Translations under genes and position numbers: made by a program | Notes under the pieces: generated by a model | Told to the model about the DNA's origin: nothing | Database searches by the model: none | The model's input: only the letters and a program-made list of their open reading frames with translations | Shown here: piece after piece, positions 5,433-47,094 of the stretch | Numbering within the stretch: position 1 is the stretch's first letter | How the letters are laid out: the number at the start of each line of letters is the position of its first letter | Assembly (NCBI RefSeq): GCF_036785885.1 | Contig: NC_092320.1 | Coordinates: 17,609,557 to 17,673,556 of the forward strand | Source: Coffea arabica | Taxonomy: Eukaryota > Streptophyta > Magnoliopsida > Gentianales > Rubiaceae | Direction of reading: 5' to 3' | Length of the DNA: 64,000 nucleotides

Positions 5433-6854
5433 CTACCGAGTAATGTGAGCGATGAAAGTATCCATCTCAGTGCTATTATCACTACCCTTAATCACTGACT
5501 GCTTAAGTGCATCACTTAATTCTTCTGCCCTCTTCCTCATCTCTTGTCCTTCAGTCGAATTCATCAGTCTTTTTACAGCATCTTCAACTACTTCTGCTTT
5601 AAAAGATTCATCTTGATGGGCTAAATCCCCCACTATTAGACCTGTTTTGAGAATCTTGGTCACCAGGATAGCATTTCTTGGCTGGTCAGAATGCATAGGC
5701 CAGGCTGCCATAGGCACCCCCATGCTAATGCTCTCCACGCATGAATTCCATCCACAATGGCTCATGAATCCACCTGTTGACGGATGGCCAAGAACTTCCA
5801 ACTGCGGTGCCCATTCTCTCAGTATAAATCCTCTTCCATCGACTCTCTCTTCATACCCTTCTGGCAGTTGAGCTTTCCTACCTTCTCCAATAGAAACATC
5901 TCCTGTATCTGCATCTCTTAGGACCCACATGAATTTCTGTCCACTTCTTTCCAATCCAATCGCGATCTGTTCCACTTCTTCATCCGATAACGAAGTTGTT
6001 GAACCGAATGAAACGAATATCACTGATTTTGGAGCTTGTTTGTCCAGCCATTCCAAGCATTTATGGGATTTTTTAGATTTCTGGTCCTCAGTTATCACCG
6101 GAGGATTAAATGGACCGATTGCCCAATTGTTTTCTGTTTCATCGAACTTTATTTCCGCAAGAAGGTTAAGATATTCACCATCTATCAATCTGGATGAATT
6201 AAACAGGTTTCCCCAGTTACACTTTCTTGCTTCTTGTTGCACCTTGAAGAACTCTGCCAACTCTTCTGGGAAGACGCTTTCGGGAGTGGATAAAAGGGCA
6301 TTTACTGGTTCTCCATCGGCCAGGACCGGTTTTCCCATGGCTTCCCAGACGTAAGAGTAGAGGGCAAAAGCCGAAACACTTTGAAAGCAGTAAGACTCGG
6401 CATTCGGGATGGATGGCATATCCTGGACAACATAACACATGAGAGAGTCATGAATTACTACAACTCTTCTTGCCGTGCTCGAGAGTTTGGTTACAAGTTC
6501 ACAAGCAGGCTCACGGAGATGCAACGTCGCGAAAAAGGCCGGGACGAGCTGTGTGGGCAGCTTTGTAGGGGCTTTGGGGTCAGGTGGAGGCGTTGGAAAA
6601 GAAGGTAGTGGGAATTCATGGAAACGGATATCGGAAATGGCTAGAGGATCCCATCCATGCACTCGATCTTTAGCCTGGCGGTTGTGAGTGGCCGAGCCAA
6701 CAAAGTGCACGGGTATGTTGTAGGATGAGATGAGGCGGGAGAGGTGAAGGAGCTGGTTGAGATGCCCTTGTGCTGGAAGGGGCACCATAACCACCACCAC
6801 ATCTGTTTTCTCGTCATAGCCGGCTTTTGCCCCGGGCACTTCAAGTTTTGCCAT
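5433..6854 (-). CDS. Family-1 UDP-glycosyltransferase, zeatin O-glucosyltransferase-like (copy 1)
   Basis: A 473-residue single-exon UGT predicted to transfer a sugar from a UDP-sugar to a small hydroxylated acceptor in the cytosol. The GT-B N-domain carries the catalytic His at residue 31 in PLPAQGHLNQLLHLS, with its Asp partner near 136 in VVVIHDSLMCYV. The PSPG donor box spans about 348-391, from WAPQLEVLGHPS to AAWPMHSDQ. The final Gln is typical of UDP-glucose users. The GHLNQLLHLSRLISSYNIPV block and the short ...FIAHITR tail place it with zeatin O-glucosyltransferases (UGT93 type). I chose the ATG at 6854. The frame stays open 53 codons upstream, but that stretch encodes an AT microsatellite and has no family similarity. 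It is the most divergent of the eight copies (LEVLGHPS against LEILGHSS elsewhere). The true acceptor is unknown. Confidence 0.93.
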   Translation of the reverse strand: MAKLEVPGAKAGYDEKTDVVVVMVPLPAQGHLNQLLHLSRLISSYNIPVHFVGSATHNRQAKDRVHGWDPLAISDIRFHEFPLPSFPTPPPDPKAPTKLPTQLVPAFFATLHLREPACELVTKLSSTARRVVVIHDSLMCYVVQDMPSIPNAESYCFQSVSAFALYSYVWEAMGKPVLADGEPVNALLSTPESVFPEELAEFFKVQQEARKCNWGNLFNSSRLIDGEYLNLLAEIKFDETENNWAIGPFNPPVITEDQKSKKSHKCLEWLDKQAPKSVIFVSFGSTTSLSDEEVEQIAIGLERSGQKFMWVLRDADTGDVSIGEGRKAQLPEGYEERVDGRGFILREWAPQLEVLGHPSTGGFMSHCGWNSCVESISMGVPMAAWPMHSDQPRNAILVTKILKTGLIVGDLAHQDESFKAEVVEDAVKRLMNSTEGQEMRKRAEELSDALKQSVIKGSDNSTEMDTFIAHITR

Positions 6855-6881
6855 CTGAAAAAGTAATTTTTTTTCAGGCAA

Positions 6882-6945
6882 TTTGTGATTCAGTGTTTGT
6901 GGTGTATATATATATATATATATTTTGTGATTCAGTGTTTGTGGT
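6882..6945. repeat. 22-bp direct repeat flanking an (AT)n tract in the UGT copy 1 leader
   Basis: TTTGTGATTCAGTGTTTGTG followed by GT occurs at 6882-6903 and again at 6924-6945, separated by an (AT)n microsatellite (about 6904-6922). It lies 30-90 bp upstream of the chosen start codon, in the probable 5' UTR or core promoter. Confidence 0.9.
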
Positions 6946-7013
6946 TTAAGAAGTCCAATTTTTGGTAATCTGAAAAACTTTTGGTATGAGAATTGTTTTT
7001 TTATATGTTTCAA

Positions 7014-14440: not shown

Positions 14441-15886
14441 CTACCGACCAATATGAGCAATGAAAGAATCCATCTCCAAGCGACTAGTACCGCCTTCCAT
14501 AACAGAATCCTTTACTGCTTTGCTCAATTCTTTTGCCCTTTGCCTCATCTCTTCTCCTTCAGCTGAATCCATCAATCTTCTCACAGCATTTTCAACAGCC
14601 ATGGATGTCTCAAGTTCGTCTTGCCGAGACCAATCCCTTACCGACAGACCAATTTTCAGCACCTTTTCCAGTAGTATTGCGTTTCTGTACTGGTCAGTAT
14701 GCATAGGCCATGCCGCCACCGGCACTCCCATGCTAATGCTCTCCATACACGAGTTCCATCCGCAGTGGCTCATGAATCCACCTGTTGATGAATGTCCAAG
14801 AATCTCCAGTTGGGGTGCCCAATCCCTCATAATTATTCCTCTTCCTTCAGTTCTTTCTTCGAATCCTCCGGGCAACTGAACTCTCCTAACTTCTCCCTTG
14901 AAGACATCTCCTTGATCTCCATCCTTCAGTATCCATATGAACTTTTGCCCGCTTTTCTCTAATCCAATCGCGATCTGCGTGGCTTCCTCGTCCGATACTG
15001 AAGTATTCGAACCAAAGCAAACAAAAATGACCCAGTTTGGGCCTTGTTTGTCTAGCCACTCCAGGCAATAGTGTCTCTGTCCCGTGTTTTTCTGCTCATT
15101 GATCTCAACTGGGTTGAAGGGACCAACAGCCCATTGCTTGTGGGAATCGGCAGCACTGGCTTTTGCAAGAAGATCAAGGTATGGACCCTCTATAAACCTG
15201 CATGTGTTGTACAGATCGCCCCCAGAGCTAATTGGCTTGGATTCATTTTGCAATTTTATGAAATCTTTCAACTCTTGAGGTAAAGAACTTGCATGTGATG
15301 GAAGATTTTCGAGTGCTTCAAGTATTTCAGGCTCGAGTACTCTAGGTTTCCCTATTTTTTCCCAAGAATATGCGTACGCGGTGAAGGCTGAGACGCTCAT
15401 AAAGCTATAGGACTCTGCATTGGGAATTAAATCAACATCCTGGATGACATATGGCGTAACGGAGTCATAAATAACCACCAATCTTCTCGTTGTGCTAGAA
15501 AGTTGTTGCAGAAGTGCGTAAACTGGCTCCCGGAGTTTGATGGATGCTTTCAGCATTGGGATGAGTTGTACGGGAAATTTTGTCGGGGCGTTTGGGTCGG
15601 GAGGAGGAGTTTCATAAGAAGGGACAGGAAAATCGTGGAAATGGATGTTGGAAATGGCAAGAGGATCCCAACCTTGTACTCGGACCTTCGCCTGGCGGGT
15701 GTGAGTGGCCGTGCCAACGTAGTGAACGGGTATATTGTAGGAGGAGATGAGGCGGGAGAGATGGAGGAGCTGGTTGAGATGACCTTGTAAAAGAAGGGGA
15801 ACCATAACCACAGTTACTTCATGTGTTTCTTCTTCTTGAATGCTACCAATTTGGTTTTGTGCAGTAGAATGACCAGTTTTGGGCAT
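14441..15886 (-). CDS. Family-1 UDP-glycosyltransferase, zeatin O-glucosyltransferase-like (copy 2)
   Basis: A 481-residue intact single-exon UGT. The catalytic His is residue 36 in LLLQGHLNQLLHLS and the paired Asp about 141 in VVIYDSVTPYV. The PSPG box covers about 356-399, starting WAPQLEILGHSST and ending AAWPMHTDQ, with Gln at the sugar-contacting last position. The residues before the catalytic His read LLL, where six of the other copies have a Pro-Ala pair, and TDQ replaces SDQ. It is closest to copy 3 (shared ATHTRQAKVRVQGWDP and TCRFIEGPYLDLLAKA), and the 3' flanks match too. The upstream segment at the position of the TATA box of copies 3 and 4 reads CTTCTAAGAGC, so the TATA core is altered. 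The acceptor is not predictable; the family's known substrates are cytokinins and other hydroxylated metabolites. Confidence 0.93.
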   Translation of the reverse strand: MPKTGHSTAQNQIGSIQEEETHEVTVVMVPLLLQGHLNQLLHLSRLISSYNIPVHYVGTATHTRQAKVRVQGWDPLAISNIHFHDFPVPSYETPPPDPNAPTKFPVQLIPMLKASIKLREPVYALLQQLSSTTRRLVVIYDSVTPYVIQDVDLIPNAESYSFMSVSAFTAYAYSWEKIGKPRVLEPEILEALENLPSHASSLPQELKDFIKLQNESKPISSGGDLYNTCRFIEGPYLDLLAKASAADSHKQWAVGPFNPVEINEQKNTGQRHYCLEWLDKQGPNWVIFVCFGSNTSVSDEEATQIAIGLEKSGQKFIWILKDGDQGDVFKGEVRRVQLPGGFEERTEGRGIIMRDWAPQLEILGHSSTGGFMSHCGWNSCMESISMGVPVAAWPMHTDQYRNAILLEKVLKIGLSVRDWSRQDELETSMAVENAVRRLMDSAEGEEMRQRAKELSKAVKDSVMEGGTSRLEMDSFIAHIGR

Positions 15887-19930: not shown

Positions 19931-20120
19931 AATTTTTTGTTTTAAAGTATATATAATTATCAAGTGTATCCTGAAATATTAGCTATTTGTTTGGAATTAG
20001 AAGTTTTTATTGTATATTTTGCTCCTATACACTTTGCTGATATATATGAGTAGGCCTATATAATATGCCAATATATATATGAGCTCTTTGTCTGTTTTAA
20101 TAACATTTGACTACTACTAG

Positions 20121-23100
20121 TGTGAGAACCCGTATTTCCCTAATATTTTCCTAGGGTTTTAGTTCCTTTAATTGCGTAATTTTTGCATTTTCTGGTTTAG
20201 AAATATTTTCTGGATGGATTTTATGAGCAATTATGGTTTTGAGATGATTTTTCTAGCATTGGAGAATTTTTAAAAAATTAAGAATATATATTGGACGTGG
20301 GACCCACTAGTGCGAAAAGTTCGGAAAAATTCGGCCAATTAGGTTAAATTTCGGATACTGGTGGAAATTTATCGGGTGTTAAGAGATAAGTAGAGGGTGA
20401 CATGGCATTGATGTGAGAGGAATCAAGTGATAGGAAGGCATTAAATGAAGTGCCAAGTGGCACTATGTGATTGGTCCACTTGTTGGACATTTTTGACTTT
20501 TCTTACCATGGATTAAATATCTCAAAAATTGACTAAAAATTCACTCTTTCTTACCTCTTGTTGGCCGACTCTTGAGAGCTCAAGAAGGAAGAGAATTGCT
20601 TCAAATTTCAAGCTTCCATATAGCTCAATCTTCCAAACCACTTGCCTAACTTAGTTTCTATTCCATAAAAGCCTTCCATTAGGTGCTAGTGAGTTGCTTA
20701 GTGAAGTTTTTTGGAAGAGCTAAGGTGGTCTACAACTCCTCTTCTCTTGTTTACTAGGTAAGTGATGATTGAACATTCTTTTATAGCTAATGATGTTGAA
20801 TTTATGCCTAATGGTGGCTATTGTGTTAGAAATTGTGGATTATTTCTTGGTTTGAAGTGATTTGGTTGAGTTTTTTATTTTTTGAGGAATTTTCTGGTTT
20901 CATATGATCTTGATGGTGTGGTTGTTTTTGATGGTTGGTAATAAGGGGCTTTGGCTCTAGTAGGTGCATATGATAGAAAATTGCAATCAATTTTGGATTT
21001 GGAAGAATTTCTGGAAAATTTGGGTTCTTGGTTGAACATTCTGTCCGAAATTTTAGGTCATAGATAGAGGCCGAATTGGACTTTACTCAAAACATAAAAG
21101 TTGTAGGTATTGATGAGTTTGAAGTGCCTGCAAAATTTCAGGGCATTTGGAGTAGTGTAGAGTGAGTTATGCCGTTTTTACTGTTGCTGTTCTGGGTGAA
21201 CAGAATGTGCGAACTGCGATAGTAATTGTCTGTTTTGACTGGAATTGGTTTGGATTTTGTTGTTGGTGTCTTCTGATGAAATGTAGAGGGATGTCTTAGC
21301 TACCTTATGCCTTTGGAATCAATGCATTTGGACCTGTATAGACCGAATTATACTGATTACAGTTTTGTGTGATTTGTAAACCTGCAATTACGGTTCAGGT
21401 TGTGGTATTCTGCATTTTCGACCTAGTTGTGCTAGGATTTGGACTGAGTGGCCTTCTACATTATTGTAGCCCTGTTTCATAGCTTCGAAACGGTGGGTCT
21501 TACACCCCCATCCGATGACCGTAGAGAATTTTACACCATTACCGCATAATAAGGGCAAAACAGTTTTCTATTTGGGGCCAAGACTAAGGCCATTTTCTAA
21601 TTTCTGGTTTGCTATTATGCTCATTTATGCATATGAAACCCTATTGGGGTTGTGTTTAGCATTGCTATATGACTCGTTATCGAGTCTCTTTTAGGGCTTG
21701 CTTTCATTTCGGTTGTTTCCTACCTAACTTTTGTACTTGTACTACTTTGAGCCTAGTGAACGGCTTTTGGGAATGAGATGACTTTTGTGTGAGGTGTTGG
21801 GACTGATTTGAGGAAATAATGAAGCCTTAATGGCTGGAAAAGTAAGAATTTAGGGGAAGTGCTGCCCGATTTTCTAGGCCGTTTGGTTCTTTAAGTTGGA
21901 TTTGCCTTTTGGTGAAAATGAAAGGACTTTTGGGTTGCTTGAGCCTAGATTTTCATGTTACCCTTTTATTCCCGAAAATCAGGTTTTGCACCCTTGCATT
22001 AGTAATTATTTGGTGAGGTATACGACTAGTAGTCGAGCCTCACATGTGCACTCTGTTTACTCGATTCTGGATGTGAAACCTTCAATTGGTTTATTTTGAT
22101 TATTTTAGGGTTTCTTGGCGATTAAGGCCAATCTGAAGTGAAAACTTTTGAAGTTGAGCCGGTGAGTGTACCACTCCCCTCCATTGCTGTTTAACTTGAT
22201 TTCTGCTCTGCAATCTGTTTATTTGTTCGAGACGAGGGTGTACTTTATCACACTCGTTCTCTAGTCTGTTCATATGCCAATTTACTATGCAAAATTTGAA
22301 TCTGTTATCTGTGTCTGCATCTGTTCGGATTTCTATGACCTATGAGCTCAATCCTGTGGCTAAGTTATTCGAGTCGGGCCGGCAAGGGCCTGGACGATTA
22401 GATAACGAACCACGGTAGTCTGTTCGGGGATTGTGGGTATTGAGACCCTTGATTCCGGGTATACTCGAGTATTACCATTTCTGTTCGGTTACGGTGAGCG
22501 GGCCCGGCAAAGGGGTGTTTGGTGGACGGAATTCGGTGTAAAGAGGGGTCTACGGACGCGTTGGTTCTATATACGTTGACGGAGAGTCAACTGGTTTGGA
22601 TCAAGTACTGCGCTGGAAATTTGGCTCCTGAGAGCCACCTGTATCCTTCTGATTTGAATCATTAGTTCCTTTGCTTTACATCTGATTTGTTAAATGTGAA
22701 ATGTCATGATTTTAATGCTATCTGTTTGGTACCTCATTGAGCGCAAGCTCACCCCGTTCTGTTCCTTTTGTTTTCCTTACAGGAAAAATAAATACTTTTG
22801 GTCTGGATTTGACAAATGGCTGCCAAATTGAGCTAGTGGAACATATCTTTTGTATAGCTCATGTATTAAAACCCTAAGCGTACTTTTGGGGCGTTTTCTC
22901 TTTTGATTTGGCAAACCGTGTATATGTATCAACTTTTGAAAACTTTTGTATGTCATTTTGGATTGTTATCGCTAAAGTTCCGATATGAGTGTTTGTGTGC
23001 TCTTTCGATTGGGTTCTGACGGGTCGGTTACTATTCATGGCCGACTCCGACTTTGTTTTTTTTTTATTTTTGTGGGTTCGACTTGTTTTCACGCGGTGGT

Positions 23101-23212
23101 ATGACCCGAAAAGTATTAGATCGTGCTAATCTGATCCGTAGTCCTGGCGAGAGCTGGGCAGGCAGTCCGCTAACCCCTTTGGTTCGCCTTAGGGGAAAGT
23201 GGGGTTGTTACA
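20121..23212 (+). repeat. LTR 1 of the composite element
   Basis: The 3092-bp long terminal repeat has TG...CA ends. Small open frames inside it recur at the same places in all three LTRs and are not counted as genes. LTRs of this length are typical of Tekay/Del-type Ty3 elements. Confidence 0.93.
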
Positions 23213-23214
23213 AG

Positions 23215-23228
23215 TGGTATCAGAGCCA
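23215..23228 (+). other. Primer binding site
   Basis: TGGTATCAGAGCCA lies two bases inside the LTR end and matches the complement of the 3' end of initiator tRNA-Met, the usual primer of plant Ty3 and Ty1 elements. The second internal region has the same site at 28113-28126. Confidence 0.9.
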
Positions 23229-23733
23229 CGTCGCGTGGTCTCTGCGCGGAGTGAGACTGGGCCAAGTGGTGTTGTGGTCCTAATTTCATGAATTTGTCTA
23301 AGTGCTCGTTTGAGCGTAAGTTATGAACCGGGTATGTGATAAGTGTACGAATCATTATCATGGGAATCGAGGAAGCTAGGTATGTATGTCGGGTAGGAAT
23401 CTTTAATAAGGATGGTTTACTCTTGGGACCGGCCGGCTCGAGTTGTGAATTATCTTAGATAAGATTCTTGCGCCCGGATACGAAAGATATGAGGGCCTAG
23501 GTTAGAAAGGATTTGGTGAACTAGGAAGGCCATTCCTCGGTGGATCGTCTATGTTTGTACTTGACTTAACTGGCTGTGTATATGTGTGTGGCTTAATTTT
23601 GACCGGCTTGTATATATATGTTTTGATCTTGTTTGGAATGTATAAATGTGTGTTATCATAAAAGTTTTGAGTGTTACTTACATGCATCGTGCTTATTTTG
23701 GTTTAGTATTATTGCCTAGACCAAGTAAAACTC

Positions 23734-24957
23734 ATGGAAGGTACACGGAGTGGTCGGGGACGTGGGCGCGGAACTAGACAACCCACACCGGTTAGGGGTA
23801 CGGGGGAAACCTCTACTGGACCCAATCTGGAACCGCAAGTAAACCCTAATGTGCAAATAGCTGCTGCTATGCAGCAAATGACAGACTTGCTAGCACAAGT
23901 GGTGCAGCAACAGGGCCAAAACCCAAACCCTAACCCTGGAAACCCTGGTAACCATATCGAGAGCGAAGACAGAGCTCTCGAACGATTCCAAAAGTTCGCT
24001 CCGCCAAAGTTTGTTGGGGGACCCGACCCAGACGTTGCCGAAAGATGGCTTGAAAAGATGGTGGATATATTTGCAGCCCTACACTACCCTGACGAACGAC
24101 AGGTGACTTTTGCCGTGTTCCAGCTTGAGGGGGCAGCCCGTTCCTGGTGGAACGTAATTCGGCAGAAGTGGGAACGAGAACAGACACCTAGGACTTGGGT
24201 GAACTTCATCAGAGAGTTCAATGCGAAGTTTTTCCCTCCTTTAGTTCAGGAAAGGAAGGAAGATGAGTTTATTCGACTCTGCCAAGGGGCTCAATCAGTG
24301 GCGGAATATGAGAGCCAATTCACCCGCCTATCCAAATTTGCCCCTGAACTGATCATGACCGAGCAGCGGCGAATAAGGCGTTTTATCCAGGGCTTGAACG
24401 TAGAAATTCAGAAGGATCTCGCGGTGGCCCAGATTAATGCTTTTAGCGAGGCCGTAGAGAAGGCGCAACGAGTAGAAAATGCCAGGCTGCAGGTAAAGAA
24501 CTTCCAAACCAAGAAAAGGAGCTTTCCTGGGAGTAGCTCTGAACAAGAAGGTACAAATACACCCCCTAAGATTGGAAAGGGTAACGGAGGAGTACGACAA
24601 CCAGGGGTGTCGCGTGATGTCCCTCAGGGAGGACCGGTCTCTGCTGCTCGTGGTCCCTGTGGATATTGCGGAGGGCCAAGTCATACGGAAACAAATTGCT
24701 GGAAGAAAGAAGGAAAATGCTTGCGCTGTGGAAGCGCTGAACATCGGATTGCTAACTGTCCAGCTCGCCTGCGCGAGCGGAGAGGGACTCTGCCACCAAC
24801 CAAGCCCAATTCTCAGCAACCCGCCAAGAGCAACCCTGGACAGACGAAAGGAGAAGGGACGGGATTGAAGGCACCAGCTCGAGTATACTCTCTAGAGCAG
24901 CATCAGGTCCCTGACTCATCTGAGGATGGAGAAGGTATGGTCCGTTGGGTACTTTAG
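23734..24957 (+). CDS. Retrotransposon Gag polyprotein (first internal region)
   Basis: A 407-residue Gag of the Ty3 type that looks whole. The N-terminus is basic and Gly/Arg-rich. The retrotransposon gag (capsid-like) domain covers about 85-230 with landmarks GAARSWWN and FIREFNAKFFPP. Two CCHC zinc knuckles follow: C309-C312-H317-C322 and C329-C332-H337-C342. No pol reading frame follows before the polypurine tract, which is unusual for Ty3 elements and is the defining trait of TR-GAG elements. Confidence 0.93.
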   Translation: MEGTRSGRGRGRGTRQPTPVRGTGETSTGPNLEPQVNPNVQIAAAMQQMTDLLAQVVQQQGQNPNPNPGNPGNHIESEDRALERFQKFAPPKFVGGPDPDVAERWLEKMVDIFAALHYPDERQVTFAVFQLEGAARSWWNVIRQKWEREQTPRTWVNFIREFNAKFFPPLVQERKEDEFIRLCQGAQSVAEYESQFTRLSKFAPELIMTEQRRIRRFIQGLNVEIQKDLAVAQINAFSEAVEKAQRVENARLQVKNFQTKKRSFPGSSSEQEGTNTPPKIGKGNGGVRQPGVSRDVPQGGPVSAARGPCGYCGGPSHTETNCWKKEGKCLRCGSAEHRIANCPARLRERRGTLPPTKPNSQQPAKSNPGQTKGEGTGLKAPARVYSLEQHQVPDSSEDGEGMVRWVL

Positions 24958-25005
24958 ATTTGATAGATTCCGTTGATAAGAAAATTTCGAGGACGAAATT
25001 CTTTT

Positions 25006-25018
25006 AAGGGGGAGAGAG
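25006..25018 (+). other. Polypurine tract
   Basis: AAGGGGGAGAGAG abuts the next LTR. The preceding text, with CGAGGACGAAATTC, is the common 3' end of Tekay-type internal regions, which suggests descent from a full element that lost pol. The second copy lies at 29904-29916. Confidence 0.85.
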
Positions 25019-28000
25019 TGTGAGAACCCGTATTTCCCTAATATTTTCCTAGGGTTTTAGTTCCTTTAATTGCGTAATTTTTGCATTTTCTGGTTTAGAA
25101 ATATTTTCTGGATGGATTTTATGAGCAATTATGGTTTTGAGATGATTTTTCTAGCATTGGAGAATTTTTAAAAAATTAAGAATATATATTGGACGTGGGA
25201 CCCACTAGTGCGAAAAGTTCGGAAAAATTCGGCCAATTAGGTTAAATTTCGGATACTGGTGGAAATTTATCGGGTGTTAAGAGATAAGTAGAGGGTGACA
25301 TGGCATTGATGTGAGAGGAATCAAGTGATAGGAAGGCATTAAATGAAGTGCCAAGTGGCACTATGTGATTGGTCCACTTGTTGGACATTTTTGACTTTTC
25401 TTACCATGGATTAAATATCTCAAAAATTGACTAAAAATTCACTCTTTCTTACCTCTTGTTGGCCGACTCTTGAGAGCTCAAGAAGGAAGAGAATTGCTTC
25501 AAATTTCAAGCTTCCATATAGCTCAATCTTCCAAACCACTTGCCTAACTTAGTTTCTATTCCATAAAAGCCTTCCATTAGGTGCTAGTGAGTTGCTTAGT
25601 GAAGTTTTTTGGAAGAGCTAAGGTGGTCTACAACTCCTCTTCTCTTGTTTACTAGGTAAGTGATGATTGAACATTCTTTTATAGCTAATGATGTTGAATT
25701 TATGCCTAATGGTGGCTATTGTGTTAGAAATTGTGGATTATTTCTTGGTTTGAAGTGATTTGGTTGAGTTTTTTATTTTTTGAGGAATTTTCTGGTTTCA
25801 TATGATCTTGATGGTGTGGTTGTTTTTGATGGTTGGTAATAAGGGGCTTTGGCTCTAGTAGGTGCATATGATAGAAAATTGCAATCAATTTTGGATTTGG
25901 AAGAATTTCTGGAAAATTTGGGTTCTTGGTTGAACATTCTGTCCGAAATTTTAGGTCATAGATAGAGGCCGAATTGGACTTTACTCAAAACATAAAAGTT
26001 GTAGGTATTGATGAGTTTGAAGTGCCTGCAAAATTTCAGGGCATTTGGAGTAGTGTAGAGTGAGTTATGCCGTTTTTACTGTTGCTGTTCTGGGTGAACA
26101 GAATGTGCGAACTGCGATAGTAATTGTCTGTTTTGACTGGAATTGGTTTGGATTTTGTTGTTGGTGTCTTCTGATGAAATGTAGAGGGATGTCTTAGCTA
26201 CCTTATGCCTTTGGAATCAATGCATTTGGACCTGTATAGACCGAATTATACTGATTACAGTTTTGTGTGATTTGTAAACCTGCAATTACGGTTCAGGTTG
26301 TGGTATTCTGCATTTTCGACCTAGTTGTGCTAGGATTTGGACTGAGTGGCCTTCTACATTATTGTAGCCCTGTTTCATAGCTTCGAAACGGTGGGTCTTA
26401 CACCCCCATCCGATGACCGTAGAGAATTTTACACCATTACCGCATAATAAGGGCAAAACAGTTTTCTATTTGGGGCCAAGACTAAGGCCATTTTCTAATT
26501 TCTGGTTTGCTATTATGCTCATTTATGCATATGAAACCCTATTGGGGTTGTGTTTAGCATTGCTATATGACTCGTTATCGAGTCTCTTTTAGGGCTTGCT
26601 TTCATTTCGGTTGTTTCCTACCTAACTTTTGTACTTGTACTACTTTGAGCCTAGTGAACGGCTTTTGGGAATGAGATGACTTTTGTGTGAGGTGTTGGGA
26701 CTGATTTGAGGAAATAATGAAGCCTTAATGGCTGGAAAAGTAAGAATTTAGGGGAAGTGCTGCCCGATTTTCTAGGCCGTTTGGTTCTTTAAGTTGGATT
26801 TGCCTTTTGGTGAAAATGAAAGGACTTTTGGGTTGCTTGAGCCTAGATTTTCATGTTACCCTTTTATTCCCGAAAATCAGGTTTTGCACCCTTGCATTAG
26901 TAATTATTTGGTGAGGTATACGACTAGTAGTCGAGCCTCACATGTGCACTCTGTTTACTCGATTCTGGATGTGAAACCTTCAATTGGTTTATTTTGATTA
27001 TTTTAGGGTTTCTTGGCGATTAAGGCCAATCTGAAGTGAAAACTTTTGAAGTTGAGCCGGTGAGTGTACCACTCCCCTCCATTGCTGTTTAACTTGATTT
27101 CTGCTCTGCAATCTGTTTATTTGTTCGAGACGAGGGTGTACTTTATCACACTCGTTCTCTAGTCTGTTCATATGCCAATTTACTATGCAAAATTTGAATC
27201 TGTTATCTGTGTCTGCATCTGTTCGGATTTCTATGACCTATGAGCTCAATCCTGTGGCTAAGTTATTCGAGTCGGGCCGGCAAGGGCCTGGACGATTAGA
27301 TAACGAACCACGGTAGTCTGTTCGGGGATTGTGGGTATTGAGACCCTTGATTCCGGGTATACTCGAGTATTACCATTTCTGTTCGGTTACGGTGAGCGGG
27401 CCCGGCAAAGGGGTGTTTGGTGGACGGAATTCGGTGTAAAGAGGGGTCTACGGACGCGTTGGTTCTATATACGTTGACGGAGAGTCAACTGGTTTGGATC
27501 AAGTACTGCGCTGGAAATTTGGCTCCTGAGAGCCACCTGTATCCTTCTGATTTGAATCATTAGTTCCTTTGCTTTACATCTGATTTGTTAAATGTGAAAT
27601 GTCATGATTTTAATGCTATCTGTTTGGTACCTCATTGAGCGCAAGCTCACCCCGTTCTGTTCCTTTTGTTTTCCTTACAGGAAAAATAAATACTTTTGGT
27701 CTGGATTTGACAAATGGCTGCCAAATTGAGCTAGTGGAACATATCTTTTGTATAGCTCATGTATTAAAACCCTAAGCGTACTTTTGGGGCGTTTTCTCTT
27801 TTGATTTGGCAAACCGTGTATATGTATCAACTTTTGAAAACTTTTGTATGTCATTTTGGATTGTTATCGCTAAAGTTCCGATATGAGTGTTTGTGTGCTC
27901 TTTCGATTGGGTTCTGACGGGTCGGTTACTATTCATGGCCGACTCCGACTTTGTTTTTTTTTTATTTTTGTGGGTTCGACTTGTTTTCACGCGGTGGTAT

Positions 28001-28110
28001 GACCCGAAAAGTATTAGATCGTGCTAATCTGATCCGTAGTCCTGGCGAGAGCTGGGCAGGCAGTCCGCTAACCCCTTTGGTTCGCCTTAGGGGAAAGTGG
28101 GGTTGTTACA
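25019..28110 (+). repeat. LTR 2 (central, shared) of the composite element
   Basis: Same length as LTR 1, and I found no differences from it by eye. It serves as the 3' LTR of the first unit and the 5' LTR of the second. Confidence 0.93.
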
Positions 28111-28631
28111 AGTGGTATCAGAGCCACGTCGCGTGGTCTCTGCGCGGAGTGAGACTGGGCCAAGTGGTGTTGTGGTCCTAATTTCATGAATTTGTCTAAG
28201 TGCTCGTTTGAGCGTAAGTTATGAACCGGGTATGTGATAAGTGTACGAATCATTATCATGGGAATCGAGGAAGCTAGGTATGTATGTCGGGTAGGAATCT
28301 TTAATAAGGATGGTTTACTCTTGGGACCGGCCGGCTCGAGTTGTGAATTATCTTAGATAAGATTCTTGCGCCCGGATACGAAAGATATGAGGGCCTAGGT
28401 TAGAAAGGATTTGGTGAACTAGGAAGGCCATTCCTCGGTGGATCGTCTATGTTTGTACTTGACTTAACTGGCTGTGTATATGTGTGTGGCTTAATTTTGA
28501 CCGGCTTGTATATATATGTTTTGATCTTGTTTGGAATGTATAAATGTGTGTTATCATAAAAGTTTTGAGTGTTACTTACATGCATCGTGCTTATTTTGGT
28601 TTAGTATTATTGCCTAGACCAAGTAAAACTC

Positions 28632-29855
28632 ATGGAAGGTACACGGAGTGGTCGGGGACGTGGGCGCGGAACTAGACAACCCACACCGGTTAGGGGTACG
28701 GGGGAAACCTCTACTGGACCCAATCTGGAACCGCAAGTAAACCCTAATGTGCAAATAGCTGCTGCTATGCAGCAAATGACAGACTTGCTAGCACAAGTGG
28801 TGCAGCAACAGGGCCAAAACCCAAACCCTAACCCTGGAAACCCTGGTAACCATATCGAGAGCGAAGACAGAGCTCTCGAACGATTCCAAAAGTTCGCTCC
28901 GCCAAAGTTTGTTGGGGGACCCGACCCAGACGTTGCCGAAAGATGGCTTGAAAAGATGGTGGATATATTTGCAGCCCTACACTACCCTGACGAACGACAG
29001 GTGACTTTTGCCGTGTTCCAGCTTGAGGGGGCAGCCCGTTCCTGGTGGAACGTAATTCGGCAGAAGTGGGAACGAGAACAGACACCTAGGACTTGGGTGA
29101 ACTTCATCAGAGAGTTCAATGCGAAGTTTTTCCCTCCTTTAGTTCAGGAAAGGAAGGAAGATGAGTTTATTCGACTCTGCCAAGGGGCTCAATCAGTGGC
29201 GGAATATGAGAGCCAATTCACCCGCCTATCCAAATTTGCCCCTGAACTGATCATGACCGAGCAGCGGCGAATAAGGCGTTTTATCCAGGGCTTGAACGTA
29301 GAAATTCAGAAGGATCTCGCGGTGGCCCAGATTAATGCTTTTAGCGAGGCCGTAGAGAAGGCGCAACGAGTAGAAAATGCCAGGCTGCAGGTAAAGAACT
29401 TCCAAACCAAGAAAAGGAGCTTTCCTGGGAGTAGCTCTGAACAAGAAGGTACAAATACACCCCCTAAGATTGGAAAGGGTAACGGAGGAGTACGACAACC
29501 AGGGGTGTCGCGTGATGTCCCTCAGGGAGGACCGGTCTCTGCTGCTCGTGGTCCCTGTGGATATTGCGGAGGGCCAAGTCATACGGAAACAAATTGCTGG
29601 AAGAAAGAAGGAAAATGCTTGCGCTGTGGAAGCGCTGAACATCGGATTGCTAACTGTCCAGCTCGCCTGCGCGAGCGGAGAGGGACTCTGCCACCAACCA
29701 AGCCCAATTCTCAGCAACCCGCCAAGAGCAACCCTGGACAGACGAAAGGAGAAGGGACGGGATTGAAGGCACCAGCTCGAGTATACTCTCTAGAGCAGCA
29801 TCAGGTCCCTGACTCATCTGAGGATGGAGAAGGTATGGTCCGTTGGGTACTTTAG
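28632..29855 (+). CDS. Retrotransposon Gag polyprotein (second internal region)
   Basis: The predicted protein is identical to the one at 23734-24957, including both zinc knuckles, and looks whole. Complete identity over 407 residues indicates that the two internal regions were copied very recently. Confidence 0.93.
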   Translation: MEGTRSGRGRGRGTRQPTPVRGTGETSTGPNLEPQVNPNVQIAAAMQQMTDLLAQVVQQQGQNPNPNPGNPGNHIESEDRALERFQKFAPPKFVGGPDPDVAERWLEKMVDIFAALHYPDERQVTFAVFQLEGAARSWWNVIRQKWEREQTPRTWVNFIREFNAKFFPPLVQERKEDEFIRLCQGAQSVAEYESQFTRLSKFAPELIMTEQRRIRRFIQGLNVEIQKDLAVAQINAFSEAVEKAQRVENARLQVKNFQTKKRSFPGSSSEQEGTNTPPKIGKGNGGVRQPGVSRDVPQGGPVSAARGPCGYCGGPSHTETNCWKKEGKCLRCGSAEHRIANCPARLRERRGTLPPTKPNSQQPAKSNPGQTKGEGTGLKAPARVYSLEQHQVPDSSEDGEGMVRWVL

Positions 29856-29916
29856 ATTTGATAGATTCCGTTGATAAGAAAATTTCGAGGACGAAATTCT
29901 TTTAAGGGGGAGAGAG

Positions 29917-32900
29917 TGTGAGAACCCGTATTTCCCTAATATTTTCCTAGGGTTTTAGTTCCTTTAATTGCGTAATTTTTGCATTTTCTGGTTTAGAAAT
30001 ATTTTCTGGATGGATTTTATGAGCAATTATGGTTTTGAGATGATTTTTCTAGCATTGGAGAATTTTTAAAAAATTAAGAATATATATTGGACGTGGGACC
30101 CACTAGTGCGAAAAGTTCGGAAAAATTCGGCCAATTAGGTTAAATTTCGGATACTGGTGGAAATTTATCGGGTGTTAAGAGATAAGTAGAGGGTGACATG
30201 GCATTGATGTGAGAGGAATCAAGTGATAGGAAGGCATTAAATGAAGTGCCAAGTGGCACTATGTGATTGGTCCACTTGTTGGACATTTTTGACTTTTCTT
30301 ACCATGGATTAAATATCTCAAAAATTGACTAAAAATTCACTCTTTCTTACCTCTTGTTGGCCGACTCTTGAGAGCTCAAGAAGGAAGAGAATTGCTTCAA
30401 ATTTCAAGCTTCCATATAGCTCAATCTTCCAAACCACTTGCCTAACTTAGTTTCTATTCCATAAAAGCCTTCCATTAGGTGCTAGTGAGTTGCTTAGTGA
30501 AGTTTTTTGGAAGAGCTAAGGTGGTCTACAACTCCTCTTCTCTTGTTTACTAGGTAAGTGATGATTGAACATTCTTTTATAGCTAATGATGTTGAATTTA
30601 TGCCTAATGGTGGCTATTGTGTTAGAAATTGTGGATTATTTCTTGGTTTGAAGTGATTTGGTTGAGTTTTTTATTTTTTGAGGAATTTTCTGGTTTCATA
30701 TGATCTTGATGGTGTGGTTGTTTTTGATGGTTGGTAATAAGGGGCTTTGGCTCTAGTAGGTGCATATGATAGAAAATTGCAATCAATTTTGGATTTGGAA
30801 GAATTTCTGGAAAATTTGGGTTCTTGGTTGAACATTCTGTCCGAAATTTTAGGTCATAGATAGAGGCCGAATTGGACTTTACTCAAAACATAAAAGTTGT
30901 AGGTATTGATGAGTTTGAAGTGCCTGCAAAATTTCAGGGCATTTGGAGTAGTGTAGAGTGAGTTATGCCGTTTTTACTGTTGCTGTTCTGGGTGAACAGA
31001 ATGTGCGAACTGCGATAGTAATTGTCTGTTTTGACTGGAATTGGTTTGGATTTTGTTGTTGGTGTCTTCTGATGAAATGTAGAGGGATGTCTTAGCTACC
31101 TTATGCCTTTGGAATCAATGCATTTGGACCTGTATAGACCGAATTATACTGATTACAGTTTTGTGTGATTTGTAAACCTGCAATTACGGTTCAGGTTGTG
31201 GTATTCTGCATTTTCGACCTAGTTGTGCTAGGATTTGGACTGAGTGGCCTTCTACATTATTGTAGCCCTGTTTCATAGCTTCGAAACGGTGGGTCTTACA
31301 CCCCCATCCGATGACCGTAGAGAATTTTACACCATTACCGCATAATAAGGGCAAAACAGTTTTCTATTTGGGGCCAAGACTAAGGCCATTTTCTAATTTC
31401 TGGTTTGCTATTATGCTCATTTATGCATATGAAACCCTATTGGGGTTGTGTTTAGCATTGCTATATGACTCGTTATCGAGTCTCTTTTAGGGCTTGCTTT
31501 CATTTCGGTTGTTTCCTACCTAACTTTTGTACTTGTACTACTTTGAGCCTAGTGAACGGCTTTTGGGAATGAGATGACTTTTGTGTGAGGTGTTGGGACT
31601 GATTTGAGGAAATAATGAAGCCTTAATGGCTGGAAAAGTAAGAATTTAGGGGAAGTGCTGCCCGATTTTCTAGGCCGTTTGGTTCTTTAAGTTGGATTTG
31701 CCTTTTGGTGAAAATGAAAGGACTTTTGGGTTGCTTGAGCCTAGATTTTCATGTTACCCTTTTATTCCCGAAAATCAGGTTTTGCACCCTTGCATTAGTA
31801 ATTATTTGGTGAGGTATACGACTAGTAGTCGAGCCTCACATGTGCACTCTGTTTACTCGATTCTGGATGTGAAACCTTCAATTGGTTTATTTTGATTATT
31901 TTAGGGTTTCTTGGCGATTAAGGCCAATCTGAAGTGAAAACTTTTGAAGTTGAGCCGGTGAGTGTACCACTCCCCTCCATTGCTGTTTAACTTGATTTCT
32001 GCTCTGCAATCTGTTTATTTGTTCGAGACGAGGGTGTACTTTATCACACTCGTTCTCTAGTCTGTTCATATGCCAATTTACTATGCAAAATTTGAATCTG
32101 TTATCTGTGTCTGCATCTGTTCGGATTTCTATGACCTATGAGCTCAATCCTGTGGCTAAGTTATTCGAGTCGGGCCGGCAAGGGCCTGGACGATTAGATA
32201 ACGAACCACGGTAGTCTGTTCGGGGATTGTGGGTATTGAGACCCTTGATTCCGGGTATACTCGAGTATTACCATTTCTGTTCGGTTACGGTGAGCGGGCC
32301 CGGCAAAGGGGTGTTTGGTGGACGGAATTCGGTGTAAAGAGGGGTCTACGGACGCGTTGGTTCTATATACGTTGACGGAGAGTCAACTGGTTTGGATCAA
32401 GTACTGCGCTGGAAATTTGGCTCCTGAGAGCCACCTGTATCCTTCTGATTTGAATCATTAGTTCCTTTGCTTTACATCTGATTTGTTAAATGTGAAATGC
32501 CATGATTTTAATGCTATCTGTTTGGTACCTCATTGAGCGCAAGCTCACCCCGTTCTGTTCCTTTTGTTTTCCTTACAGGAAAAATAAATACTTTTGGTCT
32601 GGATTTGACAAATGGCTGCCAAATTGAGCTAGTGGAACATATCTTTTGTATAGCTCATGTATTAAAACCCTAAGCGTACTTTTGGGGCGTTTTCTCTTTT
32701 GATTTGGCAAACCGTGTATATGTATCAACTTTTGAAAACTTTTGTATGTCATTTTGGATTGTTATCGCTAAAGTTCCGATATGAGTGTTTGTGTGCTCTT
32801 TCGATTGGGTTCTGACGGGTCGGTTACTATTCATGGCCGACTCCGACTTTGTTTTTTTTTTATTTTTGTGGGTTCGACTTGTTTTCACGCGGTGGTATGA

Positions 32901-33008
32901 CCCGAAAAGTATTAGATCGTGCTAATCTGATCCGTAGTCCTGGCGAGAGCTGAGCAGGCAGTCCGCTAACCCCTTTGGTTCGCCTTAGGGGAAAGTGGGG
33001 TTGTTACA
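29917..33008 (+). repeat. LTR 3 of the composite element
   Basis: Same length as the others. I noticed only two single-base differences from LTRs 1 and 2, both in the last sixth of the repeat. It ends at TTGTTACA and is followed directly by host sequence. Confidence 0.92.
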
Positions 33009-33659
33009 ACTAACTTCGTCAAAGAGACCATCTATTGAATTTGAGTGTTCGCTTGTCTTTCTTTTTCGCATTCAATAGCATAGCACAGAGGTCTGACTAA
33101 TGATTAACTAATACAATAGCAACTAAAAGTACATACACATAGTCAGTTTTAACTCGAGCCAAACATGTCATGTATAGATACCAAGATAATAACCAAGAAC
33201 TCAAGCAATAATAAACAAAACTTACTATCAGATTTTAAGGAGAAGAACATATTTTATATTTCTTAATGGTTATTAATGTTAATAAAAGCTAAAACTTTCC
33301 AACAGAAAACATGTGGCCTCTAATTTAATCAATAACATAACAGTTTCAAAACTCTAAGTACATAAAAAAAAGTGCAAATCAAAAGCATAAATCTTAAATT
33401 TGATCTTGAGTTTTTTAGACAAACCTCATAGCAACGTATGCAAACTTGCAAGAACAAAGCACAAATAGCCTACAACAGAGGCAACTTCAATTTAAATGAA
33501 AATTTTAATTTTGCAATTAAAGCAAAAAAAAAAAAGAATAAAATTCAATGCAGATAAGGGGGAAAAGTTCAAAATTTAAAAAAATATTAATAAATGAATA
33601 TAAATAAGCAAGAGAGTAAAGGTAATTTATTGTTTTTTATCAGGTGAAAGATGAACAAG

Positions 33660-37111: not shown

Positions 37112-38548
37112 CTACCTACGAATATGAGCAATGAAAGAATCCATCTCCAAGCGACTAGTACCGCCTTCCATAACAGAATCCTTTACTGCTTTGCTCAATT
37201 CTTTTGCCCTTTGCCTCATCTCTTCTCCTTCAGCTGAATCCATCAATCTTCTCACAGCATTTTCAACAGCCATGGATGTCACAAGTTCGTCCCGCCGAGA
37301 CCAGTCCCTTACTGATAGACCAATCTTCAGCACCTTTTCCAGTATTATTGCGTTTCTGGGCTGCTCAGAATGCATAGGCCATGCTGCCACGGGCACTCCC
37401 ATGCTAATGCTTTCCATACACGAGTTCCATCCGCAGTGACTCATGAATCCACCTGTTGATGAATGTCCAAGAATCTCCAGTTGAGGTGCCCAATCCCTCA
37501 CAATTATTCCTCTTCCTTCAGTTCTTTCTTCGAATCCTCCGGGCAACTGAGCTCTCCTAACTTCTCCCTTGAAGATATCTCCTTGATCTCCATCCTTCAG
37601 TATCCATATGAACTTTTGCCCGCTTTTCTCTAATCCAATCGCGATCTGCGCGGCTTCCTCGTGTGATACTGAAGTATTCGAACCAAAGCAAACAAAAATG
37701 ACCGAGTTTGGGCCTTGTTTGTCAAGCCACTCCAGGCAATAGTGTCTCTGTTCTGTGTTTTTCTGCCCATTGATCTCAACTGGATTGAAGGGACCAACAG
37801 CCCATTGCTTGTGGGAATCGGCAGTTTTGGCTTTTGCAAGAAGATCAAGGTACGGACCCTCTATAAACCTGCATGTGTTGTACAGATCGCCAGAGATAAT
37901 TGGCATGGATTCCTTTTGCAATTTTAAGAAATCTGTCACCTCCTGAGGTAAAGAACTTTCATGTGATGGAAGACTTTCGAGTGCTTCAAGTATTTCAGGC
38001 TCAAATACTCTAGGTTTCCCTTCTTGTTCCCAAGAAAACGTGTAAATAGCGAAGGCTGAGATACTTATAAACGTGTAGGACTCTGCATTCGGTATTAAAC
38101 CCACATCCTTGATGACATATGGCGTAACAGAGTCACAAATAACAACCAATCTTCTCGTTGTGCTAGAAAGTTGTTGCAGAAGTGCGTGAACTGGCTCCCG
38201 GAGTTTGACGGATGCATTCAACACTGGGATGAGTTGAGTGGGAAATTTTGTTGGGGCGTTTGGGTCGGGAGGAGGAGCTTCATAAGAAGGGGTGGAAAAT
38301 TCGTGGAAATGGATGTTGGAAATGGCGAGAGGATCCCAACCTTGGACTCGGACCTTTGCTTGGCGAGTATGAGTGGCCGTGCCAACATAGTGAACGGGTA
38401 TATTGTAGGAGGAGATGAGGCGGGAGAGATGCAGGAGTTGGTTGAGATGACCTTGTAAAGGAAGGGGAACCATCACCACAGTTACTTCATGTGTTTCTTG
38501 AATACTAGCAATTTGGTTTTGGACTGTTGAATGATCATTTTTGGCCAT
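37112..38548 (-). CDS. Family-1 UDP-glycosyltransferase, zeatin O-glucosyltransferase-like (copy 3)
   Basis: A 478-residue intact single-exon UGT. The catalytic His is residue 34 in PLPLQGHLNQLLHLS and the Asp about 139 in VVICDSVTPYV. The PSPG box at about 353-396 starts WAPQLEILGHSST and ends AAWPMHSEQ. Glu therefore replaces the Asp found at the second-last PSPG position of the other seven copies. Both residues occur in plant UGTs and contact the sugar hydroxyls, so activity is expected. It is the sister of copy 2 in coding sequence and 3' flank, though about 22 kb away because the LTR element lies between them. A TATA box is present at the expected distance. The acceptor is unknown. Confidence 0.93.
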   Translation of the reverse strand: MAKNDHSTVQNQIASIQETHEVTVVMVPLPLQGHLNQLLHLSRLISSYNIPVHYVGTATHTRQAKVRVQGWDPLAISNIHFHEFSTPSYEAPPPDPNAPTKFPTQLIPVLNASVKLREPVHALLQQLSSTTRRLVVICDSVTPYVIKDVGLIPNAESYTFISISAFAIYTFSWEQEGKPRVFEPEILEALESLPSHESSLPQEVTDFLKLQKESMPIISGDLYNTCRFIEGPYLDLLAKAKTADSHKQWAVGPFNPVEINGQKNTEQRHYCLEWLDKQGPNSVIFVCFGSNTSVSHEEAAQIAIGLEKSGQKFIWILKDGDQGDIFKGEVRRAQLPGGFEERTEGRGIIVRDWAPQLEILGHSSTGGFMSHCGWNSCMESISMGVPVAAWPMHSEQPRNAIILEKVLKIGLSVRDWSRRDELVTSMAVENAVRRLMDSAEGEEMRQRAKELSKAVKDSVMEGGTSRLEMDSFIAHIRR

Positions 38549-45657: not shown

Positions 45658-47094
45658 CTACCTACGAATATGAGCAATGAAAGAATCCATCTCCAAGCGA
45701 CTTAGACCACCTTCCATAACAGATCCCTTGACAGCTTTGCTCAATTCTCTGGCTCTTTGCCTCATCTCTTCTCCTTCAGCTGAATCCATCAATCTTCTCA
45801 CAGCATTTTCAACAGTTATGGATGTCACAAGTTCATTCTGCTTCGACCAATCCCTTATTATTAGACCAATCTTGAGCACCTTTTCCAGTAGTATCGCGTT
45901 TCTGGGCTGGTCAGAATGCATAGGCCATGCTGCCACGGGTACTCCCATGCTAATGCTTTCTATGCACGAGTTCCATCCGCAATGACTCATGAATCCACCT
46001 GTTGATGAATGTCCAAGAATCTCCAGTTGGGGCGCCCAATCCCTCACAACAATTCCCCTTCCTTCAATTCTCTCTTCAAATCCTTCTGGCAGCTGAACTC
46101 TCCTATCTTCTCCCTGGAAGACGTCTCCTTTATCTGCATCCCTCAGTACCCATATGAAATTTTGCCCACTTTTATCTAATCCAGTTGCAATCTCCTTGGC
46201 TTCTTCATCAGACACCGAAGTTGTTGAACCAAAAGAAATGAAAATGACCGAATCTGGCGCTTGTTTGTCCAGCCAATTCAGGCAATAGTGTCTCTTTTCC
46301 GAGTTTTTCTGCCCATTCATCTCAACTGGATTGAAGGGTCCAATAGCCCATTGCTTGTCTGAATCGGTTATTTTGGATTTAACATGGAGGTCAAGGTATG
46401 GACCCTCTATAGCTCTACAAGTGTTGAACAGGTAGCCAGAGCTAATTGGCTTAAAATCATTTTGAAATTTTACAAAGTCAGTCAGCTCTTGGGGGAAGCA
46501 ACTTTCCCATGTTGGAAGATCTTCGAGTGGTTCGAGTAGTTCAGGCTGGGATAGTTCAGGTTTCCCTTCTGGTTCCCCAAAAAACGAGTATATAGTGAAG
46601 GCTGAGGAGCTTGGAAAGCAGTAGGACTCTGCGTTCGGGATTAAACGCACATCCTGGATGACATATGGCATCAGAAAGTCATAAATAACTACCAATCTTC
46701 TTGTTGTGCAAGAAAGTTGTTGCAGAAGTGCGTAAACTGGCTCACGGAGTTTGATCGATGCGTTGAATGCTGGGATGAGTTGTATGGGATATTTTGTTGG
46801 GGCGTTTGGATCCGGAGGAGGAGTTTCATAAGAAGGGATGGACAATTCATGGAAATGGATGTTGGAAATGGCAAGAGGATCCCAACCGTGGACACGAACC
46901 TTTGCCTGGCGGTTGTGAGAGGCCGTGCCAACATAGTGAACAGGTATATCATAGGCGGAGATGAGGCGGGAGAGATGGAGGAGCTGGTTGAGATGGCCCT
47001 GTGCTGGAAGGGGAACCATGACCACAGTCACTTCATGAGTTTCTCGAATAATACCAACTGGGCTTTGGACTCTTGAATGATCATCCATGGCCAT
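45658..47094 (-). CDS. Family-1 UDP-glycosyltransferase, zeatin O-glucosyltransferase-like (copy 4)
   Basis: A 478-residue intact single-exon UGT. The catalytic His is residue 34 in PLPAQGHLNQLLHLS and the Asp about 139 in VVIYDFLMPYV; the Phe after the Asp is unique in the cluster. The PSPG box is at about 353-396 and ends AAWPMHSDQ. Its start (MAMDDHSRVQ, VGIIRETHEV) is that of copy 5, while its C-terminal part (GLIIRDWSKQNELV) is that of copy 6, so it looks mosaic. Differences from copies 5-7 concentrate in the N-domain between about 140 and 220 (for example SFFGEPEGKPELSQ), where plant UGTs bind the acceptor, so specificity may differ. The TATA box is present. Confidence 0.93.
   Translation of the reverse strand: MAMDDHSRVQSPVGIIRETHEVTVVMVPLPAQGHLNQLLHLSRLISAYDIPVHYVGTASHNRQAKVRVHGWDPLAISNIHFHELSIPSYETPPPDPNAPTKYPIQLIPAFNASIKLREPVYALLQQLSCTTRRLVVIYDFLMPYVIQDVRLIPNAESYCFPSSSAFTIYSFFGEPEGKPELSQPELLEPLEDLPTWESCFPQELTDFVKFQNDFKPISSGYLFNTCRAIEGPYLDLHVKSKITDSDKQWAIGPFNPVEMNGQKNSEKRHYCLNWLDKQAPDSVIFISFGSTTSVSDEEAKEIATGLDKSGQNFIWVLRDADKGDVFQGEDRRVQLPEGFEERIEGRGIVVRDWAPQLEILGHSSTGGFMSHCGWNSCIESISMGVPVAAWPMHSDQPRNAILLEKVLKIGLIIRDWSKQNELVTSITVENAVRRLMDSAEGEEMRQRARELSKAVKGSVMEGGLSRLEMDSFIAHIRR

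What the first reader, a model, noticed from the sequence alone, without database searches (positions are those of the whole stretch)
20121..33008. Tandem LTR-gag-LTR-gag-LTR composite of a gag-only retrotransposon
The period is exactly 4898 bp, the two Gags are identical, and LTRs 1 and 2 look identical while LTR 3 differs at only two bases that I could see, both near its 3' end. This is what one unequal exchange between the LTRs of sister copies would give: the central LTR is left-LTR-like in its 3' part, and the two internal regions are the same sequence. The alternatives are insertion of a tandem DNA form or an assembly duplication. Outer flanks ACTAG/ACTAA indicate a single original insertion.
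Basis: partly seen in the sequence, partly recalled or inferred. Interest (0 to 1): 0.75.

Follow-up and report, generated by a model that had tools for sequence, protein, structure and literature searches.

The report
Tandem gag-only retrotransposon made by recombination
One inserted plant retrotransposon was, most likely, later duplicated head to tail at the DNA level by recombination between its end repeats, as has happened to relatives of it elsewhere in the same genome.

Summary
LTR–gag–LTR–gag–LTR spans 20121–33008 with period 4898; the two units are identical, and LTR3 differs from LTR1/LTR2 at 2 of 3092 bases. Six of six fetched empty sites read ACTAA uninterrupted, so ACTAG/ACTAA is one 5-bp target duplication with a later change on the left. 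At LTR site 2584, LTR1 and LTR2 share T; LTR3 and seven LTR copies from four other insertions carry C: the middle LTR was copied from an already mutated LTR1.

The locus is one of many. Of 100 listed gag starts (1406 matches in all), 62 lie in 13 same-strand clusters of 2–10. In the 10-unit array, first and last LTRs differ at 47/2991 bases but three sampled internals at no more than 1/1806. Four copies of one C10 insertion hold 8, 8, 3 and 1 LTRs inside the same target duplication. Tandem LTR retrotransposons are known (PMC11899658), but that paper leaves open whether they form at insertion or by recombination; these data favour recombination. Misassembly cannot be excluded without reads.

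The parts
20116..20120 (.). left copy of the 5-bp target duplication (ACTAG; the unmutated target is ACTAA)
20121..23212 (+). LTR1, 3092 bp, TG...CA
22704..22704 (+). LTR site 2584: derived T in LTR1, shared with LTR2 (27602); LTR3 (32500) keeps C
23213..25018 (+). internal region 1, 1806 bp, no pol
23215..23229 (+). primer-binding-like site TGGTATCAGAGCCAC (initiator tRNA-Met type; name recalled)
23734..24957 (+). gag 1, 407 aa, two CCHC knuckles (read by eye)
   Evidence: Retrotrans_gag 2.8e-22; Ty3_capsid 1.8e-14
25006..25018 (+). polypurine tract AAGGGGGAGAGAG
25019..28110 (+). LTR2, the middle LTR, identical to LTR1; by our reading the product of the exchange
28111..29916 (+). internal region 2, identical to internal region 1
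28113..28127 (+). primer-binding-like site of unit 2
28632..29855 (+). gag 2, identical to gag 1
29904..29916 (+). polypurine tract of unit 2
29917..33008 (+). LTR3, two differences from LTR1/LTR2; A at 32953 is derived
33009..33013 (.). right copy of the target duplication (ACTAA)

Best explanation
A gag-only, non-autonomous Ty3/gypsy-type LTR retrotransposon inserted once, duplicating the target ACTAA. Its 5' and 3' LTRs then each gained a point mutation. Later the 3' LTR of one copy paired with the 5' LTR of its sister chromatid (or homologue), and a crossover somewhere upstream of LTR position 2584 produced LTR1-int-hybrid LTR-int-LTR3. The middle LTR ends like LTR1, and both internals are copies of one. 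Shown: single insertion, identical internals, and a derived base shared by LTR1 and LTR2. Inferred: the crossover itself, the partner, and its position. Inferred also: that the same DNA-level process built the other arrays of the family, and that it needs no intact Gag (seen in one array).
For: (1) Empty target: the six best of 12 other full-length matches to the right flank were fetched, and 6 of 6 are continuous across the site with ACTAA. (2) Polarity, among LTR copies held: at LTR site 2584 LTR1 and LTR2 have T; LTR3 and 7 of 7 LTR copies from four other insertions have C. At 3037 LTR3 has A; 31 of 31 matches have G. (3) C1:6.86 array, 10 units by gag starts, target duplication TAGCA/TAGCA (5' edge read by eye): of 42 sites where first = inner, not last, 23 can be polarised with relatives; 14 are derived states shared by first and inner, 9 private to last. 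First and last LTR differ at 47/2991, internals 1, 3 and 10 at no more than 1/1806 (Fisher p 4e-9, entered with 2992). All three sampled internals carry the same early gag stop. (4) C1:28.18, 2 units, CTTGG/CTTGG: 4 two-state sites are derived and shared by middle and last LTR, 0 by first and middle. (5) C10: four loci with the same CCTTT duplication and flanks alike over 2.5-5 kb (at most 2 differences) hold 8, 8, 3 and 1 LTRs; all 13 inner LTRs share two states absent from the other 7 LTRs. (6) A solo LTR on C20 differing from LTR1 at 3 sites, with CCATT/CCATT, shows loss of an internal by LTR-LTR exchange in this lineage.
Against: The window alone has only two informative bases, and the int-versus-LTR contrast there is not significant (0/1806 versus 2/3092, p 0.53). 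In the C10 arrays no derived site is shared by first and inner LTRs once relatives are used; I first read them as a mosaic and withdrew that. In C1:28.18 the internals (13/1793) are not significantly younger than the outer LTRs (29/2737; p 0.34 with denominators 1806 and 2850). The relatives used to polarise C1:6.86 are only 70-84% identical to it and not all independent; 19 of 42 sites could not be polarised. Gene conversion between LTRs could also spread a derived base. No reads were available.
Confidence: 0.83

Rival explanations
1. The element inserted already as a tandem form, made by template switching, a one-LTR circle transcript, or readthrough RNA reverse-transcribed as a concatemer.
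For: One target duplication around the whole array; PMC11899658 and PMC7215508 consider this route possible (sections and passages read).
Against: All LTRs would start equal and mutate independently, so LTR1 and LTR2 should not share a derived base. In C1:6.86, 14 shared derived sites and the contrast of 47/2991 with 1/1806 are not expected. C10 unit number differs between duplicated copies of one insertion.
Confidence: 0.08
2. Assembly duplication of a normal two-LTR element.
For: The units are identical and no reads are available; the 33-kb C10 arrays exceed usual accurate read lengths (recalled).
Against: LTR3 differs from LTR2 at two bases; clusters with unequal unit lengths (4711/4725, 3296/4820) occur on several contigs; a 12.9-kb structure is within the reach of long reads (recalled).
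Confidence: 0.07
3. Two neighbouring insertions recombined or nested.
For: None found.
Against: The empty target is continuous, with no sequence lost between the flanks in 6 of 6 paralogs, and all LTR/internal junctions are exact.
Confidence: 0.02

Closest known systems
Tandem LTR-retrotransposon structures in rice, Arabidopsis, almond and cotton (Morales-Diaz 2025, PMC11899658; abstract, passages and sections 9, 12, 13 read)
   Same: Alternating LTRs and internals from a single insertion with a target duplication; variable unit number; solo-LTR forms at the same locus
   Different: That paper could not separate insertion from recombination. Its 28 selected tandems all contain regions encoding retrotransposon protein domains, and 'gag' and 'non-autonomous' do not occur in its text as searched. 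Here a gag-only family has clusters of up to 10 units and polarised evidence for recombination.
Wukong TRIM in maize (PMC4528315) and Cassandra TRIM arrays (PMC7215508); passages read
   Same: Non-autonomous elements in tandem with three or more LTRs; unequal exchange proposed
   Different: Wukong has 230-bp LTRs and a 72-bp internal, and Cassandra no gag; here LTRs are 2.5-3.1 kb and the window, C10, C11, C16 and both C1 internals carry gag or gag-derived sequence
TR-GAG elements (PMC8704663 and PMC5818461, passages read; Chaparro 2015 recalled, not held)
   Same: Two LTRs around a single gag ORF, no pol; PMC8704663 reports that one such element transposes in Arabidopsis
   Different: Tandem TR-GAG arrays were not seen: a search for 'TR-GAG' with 'tandem' lists 6 papers, of which I looked at passages of two and at the listing only for the other four

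Membership tests
LTR retrotransposon | LTRs TG...CA, PBS after the 5' LTR, PPT before the 3' LTR, 5-bp target duplication | tested here: met
   left copy of the duplication carries one change
Ty3/gypsy superfamily | gag of Ty3 type | tested here: met
   Pfam Retrotrans_gag and Ty3_capsid
Ty3/gypsy superfamily | pol with order PR-RT-RH-IN | tested here: not met
   no pol in the 1806-bp internal; placed with Ty3/gypsy as a non-autonomous derivative, by Gag only
TR-GAG (non-autonomous gag-only LTR element) | single gag ORF, no pol, between two LTRs | tested here: met
   definition as in PMC8704663. Gag dN/dS 0.06-0.16 in 8 of 10 pairs; the other two are 0 and undefined; dS reaches 2.1, so saturated
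TR-GAG (non-autonomous gag-only LTR element) | mobilised by an autonomous partner | not tested
   no genome-wide pol search was run; one 12,011-bp tandem on C3 with C10-type LTR pieces was sampled for 5 kb and 0 of 10 ORFs hit Pfam
Tekay/chromovirus lineage | RT/IN phylogeny and chromodomain | not testable with these tools
   no pol present in the element; the lineage name is recall only
Tandem LTR-RT produced by unequal exchange | single target duplication around the array | tested here: met
   perfect in C10, C1:6.86 and C1:28.18; 4 of 5 bases in the window (explained by the empty sites) and in C8:28.36. Seven of 10 arrays probed gave no usable pair of edges
Tandem LTR-RT produced by unequal exchange | inner LTR shares post-insertion derived bases with an outer LTR | tested here: met
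   met in 3 of 4 arrays tested: window (1 site), C1:6.86 (14), C1:28.18 (4); not met in C10. A fifth three-LTR array, C11:44.94, runs on into a partial internal and was not polarised

The most novel reading that the evidence does not exclude
In this genome, recombination between LTRs has overtaken retrotransposition as the main way this gag-only family gains copies: arrays arise long after insertion, amplify even gag-broken copies, and turn dispersed retroelements into long-period satellites. In the 100 listed gag starts, 49 are extra members of same-strand clusters rather than separate loci.
Probability: 0.45. Interest if true: 0.6.

Novelty: new member of a known kind. Interest (0 to 1): 0.42.

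Why it matters
Tandem LTR retrotransposons are reported as common in plants, but whether they form at insertion or by later recombination was left open in 2025 (PMC11899658). This family offers a cheap test that works within one genome: polarise LTR differences, and compare internal age with outer-LTR age. The C1:6.86 array gives a clear answer and C10 shows unit number changing after insertion. If general, insertion dates should be taken from the outer LTRs, and gag copy counts overstate retrotransposition.

Tried and rejected
C10 LTR mosaic: first read as a switch from last-LTR to first-LTR type, then rejected because relatives show those sites to be private to one LTR or ambiguous.

Autonomous partner: a 12,011-bp tandem on C3 that shares C10-type LTR sequence was sampled (5 kb). 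Of 11 ORFs of 100 aa or more, 10 were scanned against Pfam and none hit. No genome-wide search for pol was made.

LTR-end pattern: an exact 29-base LTR/PBS junction occurs twice in the genome, both times in this window, so it was useless for a survey.

Array edges: of 10 arrays whose edges I predicted from spacing, both edges were found in 3 (C1:6.86, C1:28.18, C8:28.36; one edge each of the first and last read by eye). C2:26.08 has a 5' LTR that lacks its first bases, C13 continues upstream, and the other 5 had at least one edge not at the predicted place.

C11:44.94 has three LTRs followed by a partial internal (207 bp), so its last LTR need not be the original one; it was not used for the first/inner/last test.

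C16 gag closes early after a frame change near its second zinc knuckle; its dN/dS (0.16 with the window) includes that altered stretch.

Full report
Between 20121 and 33008 the window repeats with period 4898. The three LTRs are 3092 bp each and the two internals 1806 bp each. LTR1 equals LTR2, the internals are equal, and LTR3 differs at two bases. Each internal begins with a primer-binding-like site, holds a 407-aa gag and ends in a polypurine tract. Pfam finds Retrotrans_gag and Ty3_capsid in the gag. There is no pol.

It is one insertion. The sequence just right of the element is a moderate repeat; besides the window it has 12 full-length matches in the genome. I fetched the site from the six best, and all six are continuous across it with ACTAA at the target; four of the six align with the left flank over nearly all of the 200 bp compared, the other two only over the part nearest the site. 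The target was therefore ACTAA, and the left copy of the duplication has since become ACTAG. This explains the mismatch in the duplication and speaks against two merged insertions.

It was duplicated after insertion. At LTR position 2584, LTR1 and LTR2 have T, while LTR3 and seven LTR copies from four other insertions have C. At 3037 LTR3 has A, while LTR1, LTR2 and 31 of 31 matches among the loci held have G. A base that arose in one LTR after insertion and is now in both LTR1 and LTR2 is what an unequal crossover between the 3' LTR of one sister and the 5' LTR of the other would leave. A ready-made tandem insertion would need the same mutation twice, or gene conversion. On two bases alone this would be modest evidence.

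The rest of the genome supplies the stronger tests. A 33-base gag-start pattern with up to 3 mismatches matches 1406 places; 100 are listed, all exact, on C1 to C10. They form 51 same-strand clusters (neighbours under 7 kb): 38 of one and 13 of 2 to 10, the latter holding 62 of the 100. At the density of 1406 sites, about 0.4 such neighbours would be expected by chance among 100, against 49 seen. Most steps within a cluster repeat one length, but some do not (6278, 2412, 3296), so not every member is a clean unit.

C1:6.86 has 10 gag starts inside one TAGCA/TAGCA duplication. I fetched only its edges, three LTRs and three internals. First and last LTR differ at 47/2991 bases, the internals of units 1, 3 and 10 at no more than 1/1806. 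Of 42 sites where first and inner LTR agree against the last, 23 could be polarised with relatives that are 70–84% identical: 14 are derived in first and inner, 9 in the last. The array is thus much younger than the insertion. All three sampled internals share an early gag stop, so amplification did not need an intact Gag. C1:28.18 (two units, CTTGG/CTTGG) has four two-state derived sites shared by middle and last LTR and none shared by first and middle; its internals differ at 13/1793 against 29/2737 for the outer LTRs, a contrast that is not significant.

C10 carries four copies of one insertion, 151 to 176 kb apart. Their flanks are identical or nearly so (at most 2 differences) over 2.5–5 kb, and the target duplication is the same, CCTTT. 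They hold 8, 8, 3 and 1 LTRs. Ten copies of the host repeat that appear in the listings of both flanks lack the element, and the two flank matches overlap by five bases in 10 of 10. All 13 inner LTRs share two states absent from the other 7, which fits growth from one middle LTR. I first saw a mosaic here as well, but relatives show those sites to be private to one LTR or ambiguous, so C10 does not support the LTR-sharing test.

Gag is not required for arrays. One unit each from two related arrays with periods of 3486 and 3609 bp has an internal of roughly 0.4–0.5 kb that keeps only the two ends of the window's internal. Between diverged copies gag has dN/dS of 0.06–0.16 (8 of 10 pairs), with dS partly saturated, so functional Gag seems to have been kept in the source lineages. 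LTR and internal histories disagree: C10 shares 99.7–99.8% of the internal with the window, but its LTR aligns well only over the first 1447 bases, while C11:44.94 shares about 95% of the LTR but only 86% of the internal. This points to exchange between family members, at the RNA or the DNA level.

Prior work: tandem LTR retrotransposons are described as common in rice and other plants, with unit-number variation, but that paper states that it could not decide between complex insertion and recombination (PMC11899658; abstract, passages and sections 9, 12, 13 read). Wukong and Cassandra TRIM arrays are known too (PMC4528315, PMC7215508; passages read). TR-GAG elements are known, and one is reported to transpose in Arabidopsis (PMC8704663; passages read). 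The finding is therefore a new member of a known kind, with unusually direct evidence on mechanism. What remains open is read-level proof of the window locus, the autonomous partner, and the host species, which I could not name.

Noticed in passing
window 5433-7013, 14441-15886, 37112-38548, 45658-47094, 48952-50400, 52708-54162, 57217-58674, 62366-63832 (minus strand): A cluster of eight UDP-glycosyltransferase ORFs (Pfam UDPGT in 8 of 8; zeatin O-glucosyltransferase-like by recall); the element lies between the second and the third.
   Followed up: partly
G000:C10:26.78-27.31 Mb (L009-L020): Four copies of a segment 151-176 kb apart, each with the same retroelement insertion, holding 8, 8, 3 and 1 LTRs; internal variants are also ordered differently in the two 8-LTR copies.
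   Followed up: partly
L009-L018 versus window 20121-25018: Internal regions 99.7-99.8% identical while the LTR aligns well only over its first 1447 bases: LTR and internal histories are discordant between family members.
   Followed up: partly
L060 (C15:24.53 Mb), L061 (C21:11.27 Mb): Gag-less relatives with internals of about 0.4-0.5 kb also lie in arrays, with periods of 3486 and 3609 bp.
   Followed up: partly
G000:C3:55223878-55248198: Three C10-type LTR pieces spaced 12,011 bp apart; 10 ORFs from a 5-kb sample of the spacer have no Pfam match.
   Followed up: partly
G000:C8:28356648-28381957 and C1:6862860-6904716: Arrays with one odd-sized step in the middle (5957 among 4838; 3296 among 4820).
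   Followed up: no
L023, C20:25463618-25466709: Solo LTR 99.9% identical to the window LTR, with a perfect CCATT duplication.
   Followed up: yes
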